From positions 682,001 through 746,000 of the forward strand of contig NZ_JAQFFK010000003.1 in assembly GCF_027594145.1 (NCBI RefSeq): DNA of 64,000 nt, written 5' to 3'. This stretch comes from Methanococcoides alaskense. GTDB lineage: Archaea; Halobacteriota; Methanosarcinia; Methanosarcinales; Methanosarcinaceae. Within the stretch, counting starts at the first letter, position 1; each line of letters begins with the position of its first letter. The notes below the pieces were generated by a model. That model was not told where the DNA came from. It made no database searches and saw nothing but the letters and a program-made list of their open reading frames with translations. This document shows positions 1 through 53,426 of the stretch, piece by piece. The position numbers were made by a program, and so were the translations under genes.

Positions 1-61
1 TAGTTAACCTCGACAACATGAAAAATACTGTGGTCTCATTACTTCAAACCGTTGAGTAGAA

Positions 62-364
62 CACCCTGAGCATAAGTTCGATGGTGAGAGTGGGATTCTT
101 GAGAGGAAGCATGTTTATGCTGATGGTGTTGTTTACATCGGGAAGGAAGCTAACAATGTTGATGAGCAGGAATTGGATGTGAAGAAGGCTCAAGAATTTT
201 TGAATAAAAAAGACATTATGCAGAAGATACTTGCTTTACCTCAAAAGCAGGCTGAAAAATGGGGAGTTGATAGGAAGACTTTCCAGAGAATCAAAAAAAA
301 GATACTTGAGGATGGAGACATTAAATTGAATACTCCAGCTGTAAAGCGAATAGTATCAATTTAA
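62..364 (+). pseudogene. Decayed C-terminal copy of a B-family DNA polymerase-like gene
   Basis: The frame is open from about 62 to the TAA at 362-364 and reads EHKFDGESGILERKHV and later NNVDEQELDVKKAQEF. It matches closely, in DNA and protein, the C-terminal part of the pseudogene at 5088-6038. Relative to that copy it lacks about 20 bases near position 60, and a TGA lies in frame just upstream, so the fragment is not a functional gene. The last 60 residues form a lysine-rich, helix-turn-helix-like tail. A short frame starting at ATG 173 could be translated but has no clear ribosome binding site. The identification as polymerase-like rests on the longer copy. Confidence 0.6.
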
Positions 365-1785: not shown

Positions 1786-2104
1786 TTATACTACTCCCCC
1801 AAACATATTTGATTCACAATCATTTAATATTGCCGGTTTAGATTTTTATCAAAATTTAATTAAATATGCAGCTATTAATTAAAGTTGCTTTTTTCAAAAG
1901 AATAAGTGAATTAATTAAAAGAGTGGCATTTTTACGAGTTACCTATATCCCCGATAGATTATGCGGGGATATAGGTAAGTCTATTTTTTTGTACGCTATA
2001 ATTACAAATTGCCAAATATAATCATCCGATTATAAATGTTGATGTTGAAATATAATTAATTTGAATGGTAAAGTATTTGTATTGATGATTTCGTTATAAA
2101 GCTA
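1786..2104. other. Intergenic region between the VOC gene and the retron RNA
   Basis: No gene is seen. The stretch is AT-rich, holds the palindromic element at 1928-1996, and ends in TATA-rich sequence that could carry the promoter for the retron RNA (for example around 2085-2100). Confidence 0.5.
1928..1996. repeat. Dispersed palindromic element, copy A
   Basis: Two perfect 13-base arms (ACCTATATCCCCG at 1941-1953 and its complement at 1964-1976) enclose a 10-base loop. The flank TTTTTTTGTACGC at 1984-1996 is, read on the other strand, the GCGTACAAAAAAA start seen in copies near 7196 and 7264. This is the best-preserved palindrome of a family with members near 7264, 7340, 7783, 13875 and 31324. 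Confidence 0.75.
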
Positions 2105-2268
2105 AGTTGTCCTCAGAAACTATCTCTTGTGAAAGAGGTATGTGTGGTGTAACATCATGCAAATGGCATACTAAGCAAAGGTAAACCTTTACCTGAGGAA
2201 TATGAAATTCCGCTTCGCTATTTCAATTTCATATTTCAGAAAAGCGTTCCGCTTTTGTGAGGACAACT
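2105..2268 (+). ncRNA. Retron-like msr-msd non-coding RNA
   Basis: Perfect 11-base terminal arms (AGTTGTCCTCA at 2105-2115 and its complement at 2258-2268) act as a1/a2. A G follows a1 directly at 2116, where retrons carry the branching guanosine. Inside are small stem-loops (CTCTT/AAGAG at 2124-2137; ATGC/GCAT at 2157-2169), a 7-base stem at 2179-2194, a 10-base stem AATATGAAAT/ATTTCATATT at 2199-2235, and AAAAGCG/CGCTTTT at 2240-2256. The first stems fit an msr and the later ones an msd. It ends 43 bases before the start of a reverse transcriptase with retron signature motifs. The assignment is by layout and folding by eye; no known retron RNA was compared. Confidence 0.8.
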
Positions 2269-2311
2269 ATTTTTCAAAATCGTATTCTAAGTTGTGTTTG
2301 GTGGGCAATTG

Positions 2312-4900
2312 ATGGATAAATTACCAAATGATAATAAATTACAAATTTAGTTTAATCATTATATTGAAATAGGTATTATTCCGAAGTTAAGTAGCAATGA
2401 ATATATAAATAATTTTAATTCATTTAAAAAATTGTATATTAACAATTTGCCATACATATACGACCGAGATCATTTTTGTAGTTTGTCAAATTCATCTTCA
2501 AAACAAATTGGTTATTTTTTATCTAAAAAAGAAAAAGCTTACTCTACGTTTAATTTACCCAAAAAAAATGGTAGTTTGAGAGAGATTAGTGCTCCTGCAA
2601 AACCAATGAAATATGTACAAAGATGGATTCTTGATCATATTTTATATAAATTAGACGTTGGAGATTTTTCTCATGGTTTTGTTCCAGGCAAATCAATTGT
2701 GACAAATGCGTCTATTCATGTTAATCAAGATTTAGTACTAGGAATCGATCTCAAAGACTTTTTCCCAAATATCCAATTTAATTCTGTTCGTAATATCTTC
2801 AAATCTGCTGGATACTCCCCAAAAGTTGCTTCGTTACTAGCTGACATATGCACCCATCATCGTACATTACCCCAAGGTGCTCCAACAAGTCCTACACTTT
2901 CTAATTTAGTGGCTTTAAAAATTGATGAAAAAATTGATGCATATTGCGCAAAAATAAATTTTAAATATTCAAGATATGCAGATGATATCACCATTTCTGG
3001 TGGTTCTAATCTTCCAAAACATAAACAAATTATAATAGAAATTATTGAAGAAAATGGTTTTATCGTTAATGAAGATAAAACGAGAATGTTTTCACAAGGT
3101 TCAAAACAAAAAGTAACTGGATTAGTTGTTAATGACAAAGTGAGCATCGGTAGAAAAAGGAAAAAGAATATACGAGCGACTGTACACAATATCCTTAAAA
3201 ATGGTCCCGAAATGGAGAATAGAGAAAACAATCCTTTCTTCAAAGAGAAGATTTTTGGGGAATTAGCATTTGTTAAAATGGTCGACCCTGATTTTGCAAA
3301 TCCTTTAATACAGAAGCTTAAAAGTTTAGATTGGATAAATTACAACAAAAAGTTAAGCAATCCAAGGGAAACGGAACTTGTGGTCCGATCTCTTCAGAAA
3401 AATAGTAAAATCAACCCTGAAACTTATGATCAACCTATTGATTCAGAAGGTGACTTCTTACAAGTTATTTGTGATGTCATTGCAGAAATGAAGCTTGGTA
3501 TGGAAAGACAAAAGTTTTATCCGACATTTTGGAATGAGGAATCTTTTGTGATATTAGATGGTACTAAACATAAAGTATCTCCTACTCCTAAAATACAATC
3601 AAGTGTTCATAAAATAATTTTTTCGTTTATTGAAGAGCGTCTATTACACAAAAATATTCAAACTATAGAAGAGTTTGATGAAGAAATTAAATATTTTGGC
3701 TTTAAGTTTTTGTTTACTACACAAAAAAGAATAGAGCTGAACGTTTCCACTGGACTGGAATTAGCCCATGACGCTCAATTAGAAAATAGTTTAACTAAAA
3801 AATTACCTTCATATATGGAAACAAGTTCTTCTAAATCAGGACTCTTTATTGTTATGTGGTTTAAAGATAAAAATGGAATATTTTTTGAAAAACCAACTAA
3901 TAAGAGCAAATCCGAGATGGTCGAACATCTGGAAAAAAATACAAAAGAAGTTAACGAGAAGGATAATTTAAAGATAGAGTCAATTTTAATCGATGTATCC
4001 AATAAATCTTCTGCTTCAAAAATTTCAGCTAATGTTTCTAAGCATCGTGATTTTTCGACTGTCAATATTTCACATACTGAAAAAAGAGTTGTAAAAATTA
4101 TAGCTGTACAGCTTGCTTATGAATTGTCCACTGAAGAGTTTCCTCCTCAGATTATTGATGAAAATAGGTTGAAAACAAAAGTTTTGAATGCGCTGGCTAA
4201 GGCATTTGATTTAGGAGCTGATATTGTTTGCTTGCCAGAACTTTGTGTACGCGAAGATTGGATTGAAGGCATCCAAAATACATATACGGATATGGTGATT
4301 GTAGCAGGGAGTTACTATGATAACGAAAATCACAATGTTTGTAAACTGATAGTTGATTCAAACATATCTATTCCTTTACAAATGAAAATAACCCCTTCAC
4401 CTTTTGAGAACCCAGGAATAACGGACGAAAATATGGTCCCTGGGAGTGAGTTATATATTTATAATACAAAGGTTGGAAAAATTTCTATACTCATTTGCAG
4501 AGATTTTTTAAATTTAAGAGATAGGCTTCGAGGAAACCAAAAACCAGACATTATTTTTATTCCTTCTTATAATTCAGCAACAGAAAGATTCTATGACGAT
4601 GCACATAACCACACTACTAATAGTGCTGTATACATTGTTATATCAAATACATCTCTTTATGGAGGAACTTCAGTATTTGGTTTAATTCGCCCTGAATCTC
4701 AGGGTGCCCTTGTAAGAAGAGGTTTCAAAGATGAAAATGATCGCCAAAATAAATTATGCAAACTAAGAAAAGGAGAAGAAGGATTTGTTATTGCTGATTT
4801 CAACTTAATCCATAAGTCACTTCAGAATCCAATGCCAGCTGATCCAGCTGAAGAAATAAAACCAGTTTCAAATATAGATAAGAAATTAATTGAGTTTTAA
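2312..4900 (+). CDS. Retron reverse transcriptase fused to a nitrilase-like domain, with in-frame TAG
   Basis: The N-terminal third is a reverse transcriptase with the retron marks NASIH (NAxxH), IDLKDFFPN, PQGAPTSP, YADD and VTG. A middle region of about 250 residues is unrecognised. The last 280 residues resemble a carbon-nitrogen hydrolase: CLPELC (Glu), QMKITP (Lys) and LICRDF (Cys) give the Glu-Lys-Cys triad. Such RT-nitrilase fusions are known in anti-phage RT systems (UG1/DRT1-like); here the RT motifs are retron-type. An ATG-to-stop frame without interruption begins only at TTG 2432, but the same frame runs upstream to ATG 2312 behind a GGTGGG ribosome site, broken only by TAG at 2348-2350. 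The 40 added codons read like the usual retron N-terminus (NEYINNFNSFKKLYINNLPY), so I place the start at 2312 and infer readthrough, possibly as pyrrolysine at residue 13. Full length about 862 residues. Confidence 0.85.
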
Positions 4901-5087: not shown

Positions 5088-6038
5088 ATGGAAGCCACTC
5101 CTGAACATGCTCAGGAGGTCATTGATTATTTTCAACCCCTCAATCCTTATAGCCTTGATATTGATTAATTGAAGCCTGAAAAAGACGATATGTGGTTTTA
5201 TGGAATCTCTTCAAAACGGTATGCACTTTATACTTTTGAGAATGGAAAGATTAAGTTCATGGAAGGGGAGAGATCTTTCAAATTGCATGGACTTGGACAT
5301 TTAACAAATCCATTTCCAAAGGATGTAGAGGATTGGCAGGCTGAGATATGGGAAGACATTGTTAAACTTCATTATGGAATGATCTCTGAATTGGATATTG
5401 AAGAGAAGTATTCAAACGTGTATGCTATTTCAAGGCTCACTGTTTCAACTGCAAACGTGTTGCACAGATTTGATGCTATCAATAAAGAGAAAGAATGGAA
5501 AGATCAGATTAAACCGTTCAATTTCTATCATGTTGGGTTTCAAGTTACTGAAGATGATGGCAAGGCAGTCAAGCCTTTATCTCCTTTCTCAAATGATCCT
5601 CAGAGTATTGTTTATGAACCGTTTATTGATTATGCAACTGGAGAGCTTAAAGAAGGATCTCATTATTTCAAACCGTTGAGCAGGACAATTATGCAATATG
5701 TAGATCATCTTGAGCATAAGTTTGATGGGGATATTGGTGTTCTTGAGAGAAAGCATGTTCATGCTGATTCTGTGATTTATATTGGAAAGGAAGCTAACAA
5801 TATTGATGAACAGGAATTGGATGTGAAGAAGGCTCAGGAGTTTATTAATGAGAAGTTAGTTTATGATTATATCTTGAAGCTTACTCCTGAGAAAGCAAGA
5901 GAAATTGGAATTAAACATAGGAGTGCTTTGGCTTATTTGAAGAAAAAAGCAAAAGAAGGAAGTTTGAATTTAAAAGCTAGGAATGTTAGAAAGATTTTTA
6001 CTAATATGACCATTAATCAATTTTTACAATATCAATAA
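5088..6038 (+). pseudogene. C-terminal remnant of a B-family DNA polymerase-like protein
   Basis: The frame from 5088 reads MEATPEHAQEVIDYFQPLNP, meets TAA at 5166-5168, then continues for 289 residues with KPEKDDMWFYGISSKRYALY. The SKRYAL block resembles the KKRY motif that follows the catalytic Asp motif in B-family polymerases, and the order of blocks fits the palm C-terminus and thumb. Everything upstream of about 5040, including the catalytic motifs, is missing. The last part (NNIDEQELDVKKAQEF) repeats at 130-200. The 3' end runs 26 bases into the convergent gene at 6013-7005. The open part may still be expressed from TTG 5169, but no ribosome site is visible. Polymerase kinship is moderately sure. 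Confidence 0.6.
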
Positions 6039-7195: not shown

Positions 7196-7385
7196 GCGTA
7201 CAAAAAATAGAGTTACTTTTTTTATATACTTTAGTATCGGTTGTGCAAGCATCATACATAAACCCGTACAAAAAAATAGAGTTACCTATATCCCCTAGAA
7301 ATTGTGTGAGGGATGAAATCCGAACTCCCTATAAATCTGGCGTACACTTTTCGAAATTAGCTATATCCCCGCACAATGGTGTGTC
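7196..7385 (+). repeat. Dispersed element, copies B, C and D in tandem
   Basis: Three starts of the family are seen: GCGTACAAAAAATAGAGTTA at 7196 (truncated), CGTACAAAAAAATAGAGTTA at 7265 running into CCTATATCCCC, and GCGTACACTTTTCGAAATTA at 7340 running into GCTATATCCCCGCAC. The right arms are imperfect (GTGTGAGGG, GGTGTG). The copies decay at different points, which suggests old insertions or remnants of element ends. Confidence 0.6.
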
Positions 7386-50006: not shown

Positions 50007-51632
50007 TTAATCTACCAAATATAATTTTTTATATTCATCCTTTGCATAGTTATCAGTCATGCCTGCAATATAATCACATATTGTAGAGAGATAAGCATAA
50101 TTATTTTCTAACAACCATTTAACGAATCGATCAGAATCGTTCTCGATTTCAGAAGTACCTATTTTATTTATAGATTCAAATATTGATTCTTTATCGTGGC
50201 CATTTATATCATAGGGATTTTTAATAATCGGGCCTTGCATGTATATTATAGGAATGTCATCAAGTTTTAACAATTTAATTAACATGGTAATGTCTTTCTT
50301 TGTTCCATTTTTAAAGATATCACTAAGACGTAAATCTATACCATAGAACTGAAACTTATCACGAATTGCTTTTTCTAGCCTCATTAAAACATATGAAGGC
50401 ATTTGTAGAGGATTATTATAATATGCTTTACATAATTGTCTGATAATGAATTTCGATTTTCCATCAAACATGTTCACACCATGTGAATTTATAATTTGAT
50501 GATTTATGTAGCTTTCAATTTTGTTATCCAGAATTGTCCCTAACTCCGAAAAAGATACAAGATTTTTGTCAAGAATTGTACCATTACAAGCATTCGTTCT
50601 AGAGATGTCTAATTCGGAAATCGAGATATTATAATTTGTTGTTCGATAAACATCGATAATAAAATATTCAATGATATCTCTTACTAAACTGTCAATCATA
50701 TAAAGTTTATTTTTGGATTCTTTATTAACTTCGAGTTTGTTTTTTAATATATCCAATGAATTATAACAATCATTCAGATAAACTTTTTCTTGGTGACTAC
50801 ATGACTTACAGTTAACAGGTTTAGCATCGACAATCTCACCTATAAAGCTTATTATTTTTGAATAAACATCATTAGAATCCAATCTCAATGAAGCGTCACG
50901 TAATCCATCATCAAGATCATGTTGACGTTGAGCGATCTCATCGGCAATTGAAACAATTTGACCTTCAAGTGTTACAGAAAAATTAAAATCTAAATACAAA
51001 GTATCAATTAATTTTTTATCATGAATAAATCTTTTGATGTCCCAGCAGTTCCCACATTTAGTACAATCTTCTTCTTTACATCTTTTTGTTCTGGTGTGTT
51101 TTAAGATTCCTTCTAAAACTTGCCAGCTCAGGTTTAATCCAGGTTTATCCTGATATTTTAATGTAGTAATATCCAATACTCGGACACTATTAAAATTGTG
51201 CTTAAAACCGCCATGATTTATTTTAAATCTCGTCATTCCAAGATTGTCATTCCCACTCATCACATCATCTAACACCCTTTCACCTTCATGTCCGAATGGC
51301 GTATGTCCAATGTCATGACCAATTGCAATAGCTTCTACTAAATCTTCATTCACTGAAAGATATCTGGCAAGACTTCTTGATAATTGGGAAACTTCTAATG
51401 TGTGAGTAAGCCTAGTTCTATAGTGATCACCTTTCTCATTAGAGTAGATCTGTGCTTTGTGTTGTAATCTTCGAAAAGCTCTTGAAAAAAAGATTCTATC
51501 TCTGTCTCTTCCAAATTCGCTTCGAATCATTTCTTGCAATATAGGATCTTTTAAAGACAAGTCTTTGTTAGCATCTTCATAAAATCGATCACTTTCTTTA
51601 AATTCTTGTTTCAAATCGGAACTTGATATCAT
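50007..51632 (-). CDS. dGTPase-like HD phosphohydrolase
   Basis: The 541-residue protein has the dNTPase HD motifs: RAFRRLQHKAQIYSNEKGDH, YRTRLTHTLEVSQLSRSLAR, AIAIGHDIGHTPFGHEGERV, and later IVSIADEIAQRQHDLDDGLR with the last Asp. It should cut dGTP to deoxyguanosine and triphosphate. Two inserted cysteine groups (CKEEDCTKCGNC; CKSCSH) may bind zinc. dGTPases starve phages of nucleotides, and its place between pglX and rloA/rloB suggests a defence role here (inference). A GGTGGTAG site before ATG resembles those of brxC and pglX. Confidence 0.9.
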   Translation of the reverse strand: MISSSDLKQEFKESDRFYEDANKDLSLKDPILQEMIRSEFGRDRDRIFFSRAFRRLQHKAQIYSNEKGDHYRTRLTHTLEVSQLSRSLARYLSVNEDLVEAIAIGHDIGHTPFGHEGERVLDDVMSGNDNLGMTRFKINHGGFKHNFNSVRVLDITTLKYQDKPGLNLSWQVLEGILKHTRTKRCKEEDCTKCGNCWDIKRFIHDKKLIDTLYLDFNFSVTLEGQIVSIADEIAQRQHDLDDGLRDASLRLDSNDVYSKIISFIGEIVDAKPVNCKSCSHQEKVYLNDCYNSLDILKNKLEVNKESKNKLYMIDSLVRDIIEYFIIDVYRTTNYNISISELDISRTNACNGTILDKNLVSFSELGTILDNKIESYINHQIINSHGVNMFDGKSKFIIRQLCKAYYNNPLQMPSYVLMRLEKAIRDKFQFYGIDLRLSDIFKNGTKKDITMLIKLLKLDDIPIIYMQGPIIKNPYDINGHDKESIFESINKIGTSEIENDSDRFVKWLLENNYAYLSTICDYIAGMTDNYAKDEYKKLYLVD

Positions 51633-51686
51633 ACTACCACCTAAAATATCATCAACATACCTTAAAGTAGAAAATAGGAACGATAA

Positions 51687-53426
51687 TCATATCTTCCCAA
51701 CCAACCCTTCAAACTTCGCATAATTAACCTTGACCCCATCATCCAGATCGATTTCAATATAAGCATCTGCCTTATTCTTCAGCACCTCATCATACTCCAT
51801 GATCTCCCGAATCTGTCCAGCCAGCTTATCTCTCTGAGAAGTAACTTTATCCCCATCCAACATCCCTTTCTGAGCATCCATTTTACTTTCAAGCTCCAAC
51901 AAATAATCCATCCTCATCTTAGCCAAAGTCTGCTTATCATACCGATGCATATAGACCAAAGCATTGAAAGCCTTCCCCTTTCCCGAAGTAAACATCCAGT
52001 ATATCGGTCTCTTCTTGTACATCTTCAAATGATCCTTGTAGAAATCCTTGATAAAGTAATCCCGAATAACCTGCTCTGACCCCTTGCCACCTTTCTTCGC
52101 CAAAGCCCCTGCTATAAAGTCCAGATTTACCGACAATGTCTCTGCCCCAAACGTAAACTTAAGGAATTCCTTGAATCTGCCCACAATATCATCCGAGAAA
52201 TACTCATTATCCAGCACCGGAATAATATTATCCTCATCCGGCATGAAATCCACATTAGGTACTTTTGCCTTGAAGTCTGCGAGTGTTTCACCTTGATTTG
52301 CGAGTATTAGCCCGGGCTTTTCGGGTGAGTAGCGACCGAACATGCAGCCGACAGCGTAGGAGATAAACTGCTTAATAATTACATCTTTTTTGAATGAAAG
52401 TTTGCCATTCCTAATTTCTGTTTCAGTCTTAAGAATTGTAATATCTTTCAATGGTACATCTGGTGTTAACTCATCCTCAAGGCCATATATGTCAATGAAA
52501 ATACGATTGAGTTCTTCTTCGTTTGTATGGAGTTGATGGAATTTTTCTTTCCAGTAGGTGCAGTAGTTATTGTAAGCATCTTCTAGAGTTAATGTTGTTT
52601 TATAGTGGATTAGTTCGTTAATGTTGAAGTCCCATGATATTTCTCGAGAATCCCATTCTTCGCAAGAAATATCGATGCATTGTTGAGTTAATTTACTGAT
52701 CTGAATCTCGTCTGTTGATGAAGGTACTATAAACGGTAAGTTCACAAGATTACCTACGAGGATGCTAAGACCATCTCTAATGTAGCTTAGAAGTAGCATT
52801 GTGGGTTTTGAATTTAAAAGAGCCATTATATATGTTAGATTACTATTTTTTTCAAATGCTGACAACCCAACAGCATCAAAAATTGAGCCTATTTTAGCAT
52901 AACGCACACTGATTTGATTACTTGTAATTTTAGACCAAGTTATTGATTCTCTAAAATAGTATTTTTGATTTCTTATTGTTGATTTTAGTTTACCGTGTTT
53001 ATCAACAAAATGTTTAATGTCATATCCATCATTTTGATAATTTATAATCAAATCATTGTTCCCAAACCATTTACGAGTAGTTCCTCCACTTTTGCATGGA
53101 AACCACTTAAAGCCGGAATCAATAGAATTTTGAACATTTTCAGAGTTAAAGTATATATTATTAAATTGAATTTCAAACCAACTTCTCATAAATTTTGTGT
53201 TGTCACCAGTAGTAATTCCAGTTTTAAAATCAGCAACATCTTTTAAACTATTATTTAATTTAAAAATATCAATAATTTTATCATTTGATTCATAACAAAT
53301 CGTTTTGCCAGGAATATTTAAAAAAACAGACTGATCCAAAATAAATTTTCGATTGTCATCATTGAAAAATTCATTCTCTTTTTCATTACTTGAATTGTAA
53401 TTTATCAAATTTATAAATGTAGTCAT
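51687..53426 (-). CDS. pglX: PglX, C-terminal half as separate cistron
   Basis: The 579-residue frame begins MTTFINLINYNSSNEKENEF and continues with the recognition and C-terminal parts of BREX PglX (FKWFPCKSGGTTRKWFGNND; YYFRESITWSKITSNQISVR; GCMFGRYSPEKPGLILANQG; YDKQTLAKMRMDYLLELESK). In known type 1 systems this is one chain of about 1200 residues with the preceding methylase half. Here the N-half ends in TAA four bases upstream and this ORF is in another phase. An AAGGAAG site overlapping that stop sits at good distance from ATG 53426, so it can be translated on its own. See finding on the split. Confidence 0.88.
   Translation of the reverse strand: MTTFINLINYNSSNEKENEFFNDDNRKFILDQSVFLNIPGKTICYESNDKIIDIFKLNNSLKDVADFKTGITTGDNTKFMRSWFEIQFNNIYFNSENVQNSIDSGFKWFPCKSGGTTRKWFGNNDLIINYQNDGYDIKHFVDKHGKLKSTIRNQKYYFRESITWSKITSNQISVRYAKIGSIFDAVGLSAFEKNSNLTYIMALLNSKPTMLLLSYIRDGLSILVGNLVNLPFIVPSSTDEIQISKLTQQCIDISCEEWDSREISWDFNINELIHYKTTLTLEDAYNNYCTYWKEKFHQLHTNEEELNRIFIDIYGLEDELTPDVPLKDITILKTETEIRNGKLSFKKDVIIKQFISYAVGCMFGRYSPEKPGLILANQGETLADFKAKVPNVDFMPDEDNIIPVLDNEYFSDDIVGRFKEFLKFTFGAETLSVNLDFIAGALAKKGGKGSEQVIRDYFIKDFYKDHLKMYKKRPIYWMFTSGKGKAFNALVYMHRYDKQTLAKMRMDYLLELESKMDAQKGMLDGDKVTSQRDKLAGQIREIMEYDEVLKNKADAYIEIDLDDGVKVNYAKFEGLVGKI

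What the first reader, a model, noticed from the sequence alone, without database searches (positions are those of the whole stretch)
2312..2434. In-frame TAG at codon 13 of the retron RT gene
ATG 2312 has a good ribosome site, and the frame to the RT is broken only by TAG 2348-2350. The 27 codons after TAG are protein-like (FNHYIEIGIIPKLSSNEYIN). TAG can be read as pyrrolysine in Methanosarcinaceae, so retron expression might depend on pyrrolysine supply.
Basis: partly seen in the sequence, partly recalled or inferred. Interest (0 to 1): 0.75.

Follow-up and report, generated by a model that had tools for sequence, protein, structure and literature searches.

The report
Pyrrolysine codon in an archaeal retron
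An archaeal virus-defence-type gene (a retron reverse transcriptase joined to a nitrilase domain) carries a TAG triplet at codon 13 that is almost certainly read as the rare amino acid pyrrolysine, because in this genus TAG codes for an amino acid in many genes, including one for DNA replication; the unusual part is the make-up of the retron, not a special on/off switch.

Summary
Confirmed: TAG 2348-2350 is codon 13 of one 862-codon frame (ATG 2312 to stop 4898-4900). Seven retron reverse transcriptases (RTs) from related archaea align from query residue 2-4 through the TAG, so codons 1-40 are real coding sequence; all seven have leucine at the TAG.

The genome is a Methanococcoides-like methylotroph (RubisCO nearly identical to PDB 5mac) with a complete pylT-S-B-C-D cluster. 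TAG is hardly used as a stop: 9 of 593 genes appear to end in TAG, and most of these continue as the same protein (PolD small subunit DP1, LarE, MttB, MtbB, a PAS histidine kinase). In a congener, all 4 of 324 apparent TAG ends lie inside enzymes. A Methanosarcina control has 22 of 437, 20 with no coding continuation. TAG therefore behaves as a sense codon genome-wide, most likely pyrrolysine. A retron-specific pyrrolysine switch is unlikely, because single-copy DP1 needs the same decoding.

The retron itself is more unusual: a covarying msr-msd RNA, an RT, a PD-(D/E)xK-like domain that has lost D, E and K, and a fused nitrilase with intact E-K-C. No other protein with RT plus nitrilase was found in 238 genomes of the class.

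The parts
2105..2268 (+). Retron non-coding RNA (msr-msd): a1 2105-2115 pairs with a2 2258-2268; msr hairpins about 2121-2140, 2141-2161 and 2177-2190; msd hairpins about 2197-2237 and 2240-2256
   Evidence: Fold z-score -4.28; conserved upstream of seven RT genes with 33 consensus pairs, 96.9% of cells paired, 5 pairs with compensatory changes, slid controls 37-55% paired
2300..2305 (+). GGTGGG, ribosome-binding-like motif before the start codon
   Evidence: Sequence; same motif and spacing in L003, L004, L008
2312..4900 (+). RT / nuclease-like / nitrilase fusion gene, 862 codons with TAG as sense plus stop
   Evidence: seven homologues from residue 2-4 on
2348..2350 (+). In-frame TAG, codon 13, most likely pyrrolysine; Leu in seven relatives
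2393..3316 (+). Retron reverse transcriptase domain (residues 28-335; NAxxH at 132, YADD at 222, VTG at 268)
   Evidence: PDB Ec86 RT E=4e-50 over 28-297; NCBIfam retron_St85_RT 271 bits, cut-off 235; PADLOC RT_III-A 6e-106; motif positions
3434..4021 (+). PD-(D/E)xK-like domain, probably inactive: relatives have LDF...AEFK, here Gly463, Gly481, Glu483
   Evidence: Alignments; weak PDDEXK_9 hit, E=0.0049, in the G006 relative
4073..4897 (+). Nitrilase domain with Glu643, Lys692, Cys729 intact
   Evidence: PADLOC CARF_nitrilase 8e-92, RT_UG5-nitrilase 5e-16, RTasNitrilase 2.5e-13; E, K and C invariant in 17 aligned sequences

Best explanation
This is a retron whose RT gene starts at ATG 2312 (or TTG 2309) and contains one sense TAG codon, read as pyrrolysine by tRNA-Pyl, because this Methanococcoides-like archaeon uses TAG as a general sense codon. 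Ribosomes insert pyrrolysine at residue 13, where relatives have leucine, and go on to make an 862-residue RT / nuclease-like / nitrilase fusion. Shown by sequence: the frame, homology on both sides of the TAG, the pyl cluster, TAG within other intact genes, and the non-coding RNA. Inferred: the amino acid inserted, near-constant readthrough, and function as a single-protein retron in which RT and msDNA hold the nitrilase domain inactive until infection, by analogy with DRT1 and with retrons that have a fused effector.
For: Homology covers codons 2-12 and 14-40 in seven relatives. pylT-S-B-C-D cluster. mtmB twice with one TAG each. Apparent TAG ends 9/593 here and 4/324 in a congener, against 22/437 in Methanosarcina; here at least 6 of 9 and in the congener 4 of 4 continue as the same protein. 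PolD DP1, single copy, 608.7 bits end to end with one TAG. Fisher p=1.8e-4 raw, 7e-8 after removing read-through cases. RT between this gene and relatives under purifying selection, dN/dS about 0.13-0.19.
Against: No protein or expression data. Pyrrolysine identity rests on the pyl genes only. The assembly is 77% complete and a single base error cannot be excluded. dN/dS reflects the whole lineage, not the time since the TAG arose. Three of the nine apparent TAG ends are unresolved, so rare TAG termination is possible.
Confidence: 0.87

Rival explanations
1. The TAG is a recent nonsense mutation in a gene that has gone silent.
For: Relatives have Leu, and TTG to TAG is a single change. The middle domain has lost its putative catalytic residues. 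A decayed relative exists in G175.
Against: The other 849 codons are open and keep YADD, NAxxH, VTG and the nitrilase triad. The decayed G175 copy shows several stops and split frames, unlike this one. TAG does not act as a stop in DP1 and other genes here.
Confidence: 0.06
2. Translation stops at TAG or never starts upstream; the RT is made from TTG 2432 (codon 41).
For: TTG 2432 is the first standard in-frame start after the TAG. The solved Ec86 RT lacks a counterpart of residues 1-27.
Against: No ribosome-like site before TTG 2432 (sequence). The start would remove residues 28-40, which align with Ec86 and are conserved in relatives. Homologues start near residue 1.
Confidence: 0.03
3. The TAG is a sequencing or assembly error for a Leu codon.
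For: Leu in all relatives; only one assembly seen; no second copy of the locus in the genome.
Against: TAG is found inside many other genes of this genome and a congener, so it needs no special excuse here.
Confidence: 0.03
4. Pyrrolysine supply is a specific switch for the retron: low supply shuts it off, methylamine growth turns it on.
For: A TAG near the start would give an all-or-none effect. In Acetohalobium arabaticum, a bacterium, pyrrolysine decoding depends on trimethylamine (PMC8211752, PMC11467909).
Against: Single-copy PolD DP1 has a TAG too, so decoding must continue for growth. The TAG is not conserved among relatives.
Confidence: 0.03

Closest known systems
Archaeal 'Pyl code' with all TAG read as pyrrolysine (Kivenson et al., Science 2025; from memory, not in the held library)
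   Same: Methanosarcinaceae genome with pyl genes, almost no TAG stops, TAG inside ordinary genes
   Different: I know of no retron among the reported pyrrolysine proteins, but could not check the paper
Pyrrolysine in transposases and Thg1 of Methanosarcinales (cited in PMC8211752)
   Same: TAG inside non-methyltransferase and mobile-element genes
   Different: Here a retron, in a genome where TAG is general sense
DRT1 (UG1) and DRT5 (UG5) RT-nitrilase defence systems (PMC13275509; PADLOC)
   Same: One polypeptide with an RT and a C-terminal nitrilase domain; DRT1 is described as a minimal retron
   Different: DRT1 makes template-free, protein-primed DNA with a UG/Abi-group RT; here the RT is a retron RT with its own conserved template RNA
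Retrons with a fused effector (RT-Toprim I-C, RT-protease XI, RT-TIR XII in PADLOC)
   Same: Retron RT with an effector at the C-terminus and an upstream msr-msd RNA
   Different: The effector is a nitrilase behind a dead nuclease-like domain; RT is closest to type III-A models, whose effectors are a PRTase and a DNA-binding protein (PMC12548924)

Membership tests
Pyrrolysine-decoding genome with TAG as general sense (Pyl code) | Complete pylT, pylS, pylB, pylC, pylD | tested here: met
Pyrrolysine-decoding genome with TAG as general sense (Pyl code) | TAG hardly used as a stop and found inside housekeeping genes | tested here: met
   three apparent TAG ends unresolved
Pyrrolysine-decoding genome with TAG as general sense (Pyl code) | Pyrrolysine seen in peptides at TAG positions | not testable with these tools
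   No proteomics available
Retron | RT of the retron group with NAxxH, YADD and VTG | tested here: met
Retron | Upstream msr-msd RNA with a1/a2 inverted repeat | tested here: met
Retron | msDNA is produced | not testable with these tools
   Needs DNA isolation from cells
Retron type III-A | Separate PRTase and DNA-binding effector proteins | tested here: not met
   The neighbouring genes match OmdA and glyoxalase families, or nothing; the effector is a fused nitrilase
DRT1 / DRT5 | C-terminal nitrilase domain with Glu-Lys-Cys | tested here: met
DRT1 / DRT5 | RT of the UG/Abi group | tested here: not met
   The best 25 matches of the whole protein are retron RT models and CARF_nitrilase; NCBIfam gives a retron RT above cut-off

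The most novel reading that the evidence does not exclude
A new retron kind in which one polypeptide, containing a genetically encoded pyrrolysine, joins a template-using retron RT to a DRT1-like nitrilase after its own nuclease-like domain lost its catalytic residues; the TAG would confine the system to hosts that decode TAG.
Probability: 0.5. Interest if true: 0.7.

Novelty: new variant of a known kind. Interest (0 to 1): 0.52.

Why it matters
Automated annotation with the standard code would start this protein at residue 41 or call it broken, and would cut PolD DP1, LarE and, in a congener, fumarase and biotin carboxylase. It suggests that sense TAG reaches virus-defence-type genes, where it would act as a barrier to transfer into hosts that stop at TAG. 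The fused retron-nitrilase would let one test whether templated msDNA can control a nitrilase effector as DRT1's untemplated DNA does.

Tried and rejected
Rfam scan of the upstream region: only sub-threshold chance matches. Viral contigs: no relatives of the whole protein or of the nitrilase domain. Genome-contig scan by peptide patterns: only one distant Rhizobium RT. Taking all 44 frames with in-frame TAG as evidence was rejected, because most have the TAG at codon 2-25 with no coding signal before it and are probably upstream-extended starts; only internal cases with domain or sequence support on both sides were used. By raw score the retron belongs to that doubtful class, and it is accepted only because homologues cover codons 2-12. 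Structure prediction was not run: the tool does not list loci from the genome search as allowed input, and a single-sequence model would be weak. The Pyl-code paper was not found in the library, nor a paper on a pyrrolysine-containing retron, nor, judging by titles and the passages read, one on a retron-nitrilase fusion.

Full report
OBSERVATION. The sequence is as described. ATG 2312 opens a frame interrupted only by TAG 2348-2350; with TAG as sense it gives 862 residues to the stop at 4898-4900. GGTGGG at 2300-2305 precedes the start, and the same motif with the same spacing precedes the RT in relatives L003, L004 and L008.

IS THE N-TERMINUS REAL? Yes. tblastn against whole genomes of the class finds seven close RT relatives whose match starts at query residue 2-4. 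The alignment is gap-free across the TAG and all seven have leucine there; the six whose codons were printed use TTA or TTG. Downstream, the first standard in-frame starts are TTG 2432, 2447 and 2483, with no ribosome-like site before 2432. So the TAG falls inside the protein, not in front of it.

WHICH ORGANISM? RubisCO from the same genome matches PDB 5mac over all 474 residues with few differences (1070 bits); from memory 5mac is the Methanococcoides burtonii enzyme. Genome sizes of the genus (2.3-2.8 Mb) and GC (41%) fit. The pyl cluster holds tRNA-Pyl, pylS, pylB, pylC and pylD in that order.

IS TAG A STOP HERE? I read 800 kb of this genome, 400 kb of a complete congener (G001) and 800 kb of a Methanosarcina (G083), and called genes by codon bias. 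Apparent TAG ends are 9 of 593, 4 of 324 and 22 of 437. In this genome MttB, MtbB, a PAS histidine kinase, the PolD small subunit and LarE run through the TAG, and a sixth (51144-52733 of the sampled stretch) may. In G001 all four are interior: MtbB by its sequence, and fumarase, biotin carboxylase and an FrhB-family subunit by Pfam domains that span the TAG. In G083 only two of 22 have a coding continuation. Fisher's test gives p = 1.8e-4 raw and 7e-8 after removing read-through cases (the second figure depends on my own sorting). PolD DP1 is single-copy in the assembly and matches its family end to end at 608.7 bits with one TAG inside. A cell that ended translation there could hardly replicate. 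This is the strongest argument that TAG is decoded all the time. It agrees with the archaeal 'Pyl code' reported by Kivenson and colleagues (Science 2025; from memory, not in the library).

WHAT IS THE GENE? The RT is a retron RT. Upstream, 2105-2268 is a retron RNA with an 11-bp a1/a2 stem, msr hairpins and msd hairpins, present in all seven loci compared, with compensatory changes. Behind the RT, relatives G081 and G079 carry a domain with an LDF...AEFK pattern like PD-(D/E)xK nucleases; in the window protein D, E and K are Gly, Gly and Glu. The nuclease assignment is tentative: Pfam gives only E = 0.005, in one relative. Then follows a nitrilase domain with Glu643, Lys692 and Cys729 intact, related to CARF-nitrilase and to the nitrilase of DRT1 and UG5 systems. 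Elsewhere in these archaea the nitrilase domain stands alone beside another gene (L100) or ends a 2005-residue protein (L105). No other protein in the 238 genomes of the class joins this RT and nitrilase.

HOW IT WORKS. Shown: gene structure, RNA, domain homology, sense TAG in the genome. Inferred: pyrrolysine at residue 13; msDNA made from the RNA; RT and msDNA restraining the nitrilase until infection. DRT1, an RT-nitrilase of another RT group, forms filaments kept dormant by its DNA adducts and is described as a minimal retron (PMC13275509). A plausible history is that a retron with a fused nuclease-like effector gained a nitrilase and lost nuclease activity; retrons that captured new effectors are known (PMC12548924).

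A PYRROLYSINE SWITCH? Unlikely. The same decoding is needed for DP1. The TAG is peculiar to this gene among relatives, and the simplest origin is a Leu codon TTG changed to TAG where TAG is harmless. A side effect would be confinement: in a host that stops at TAG the gene would give a 12-residue peptide.

LIMITS. One assembly, 77% complete; no expression data; the genus rests on one protein and genome size; about 40% of the genome was sampled for stops; the paper on the code could not be read.

Noticed in passing
window 56-210 and 5700-5854; 5169-6038: The retron lies between two fragments of the same family-B-polymerase-like gene (155-nt direct repeat, 83%). The 5169-6038 product is 68% identical to the C-terminal part of an 899-residue PolB-like protein that lies near the retron of G081 (L098), so the two may travel together.
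   Followed up: partly
window 1936-1995 and 7265-7311: Long inverted repeat (31 nt, 97% complementary) around a palindrome containing GTTACCTATATCCCC, with weaker copies at 7354 and 7798; exact copies only at this locus in 800 kb. Possible ends of a mobile unit.
   Followed up: partly
L005, L006, L007, L008, L163 (RT C-termini): Another group of these retrons has a different RT C-terminal domain with GHYTGTTGGHHHGHEIYDM; no family assigned.
   Followed up: no
L105 1084-7101: A 2005-residue Methanosarcina protein that ends in the same nitrilase domain and matches the HEAT-ARM model of type XIII retrons in its middle.
   Followed up: no
L039:15613-16899, L043:15894-16913, L071:5622-6608: HerA-like ATPase, Mrr-type and N6-methylase genes of this genome also carry an in-frame TAG; sense TAG may be common in defence or mobile genes.
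   Followed up: no
L003 around 1500 (G081 retron): The RT of G081 has no ATG, GTG or TTG in frame between the preceding TAA and the conserved region, so it may use an unusual start codon.
   Followed up: no
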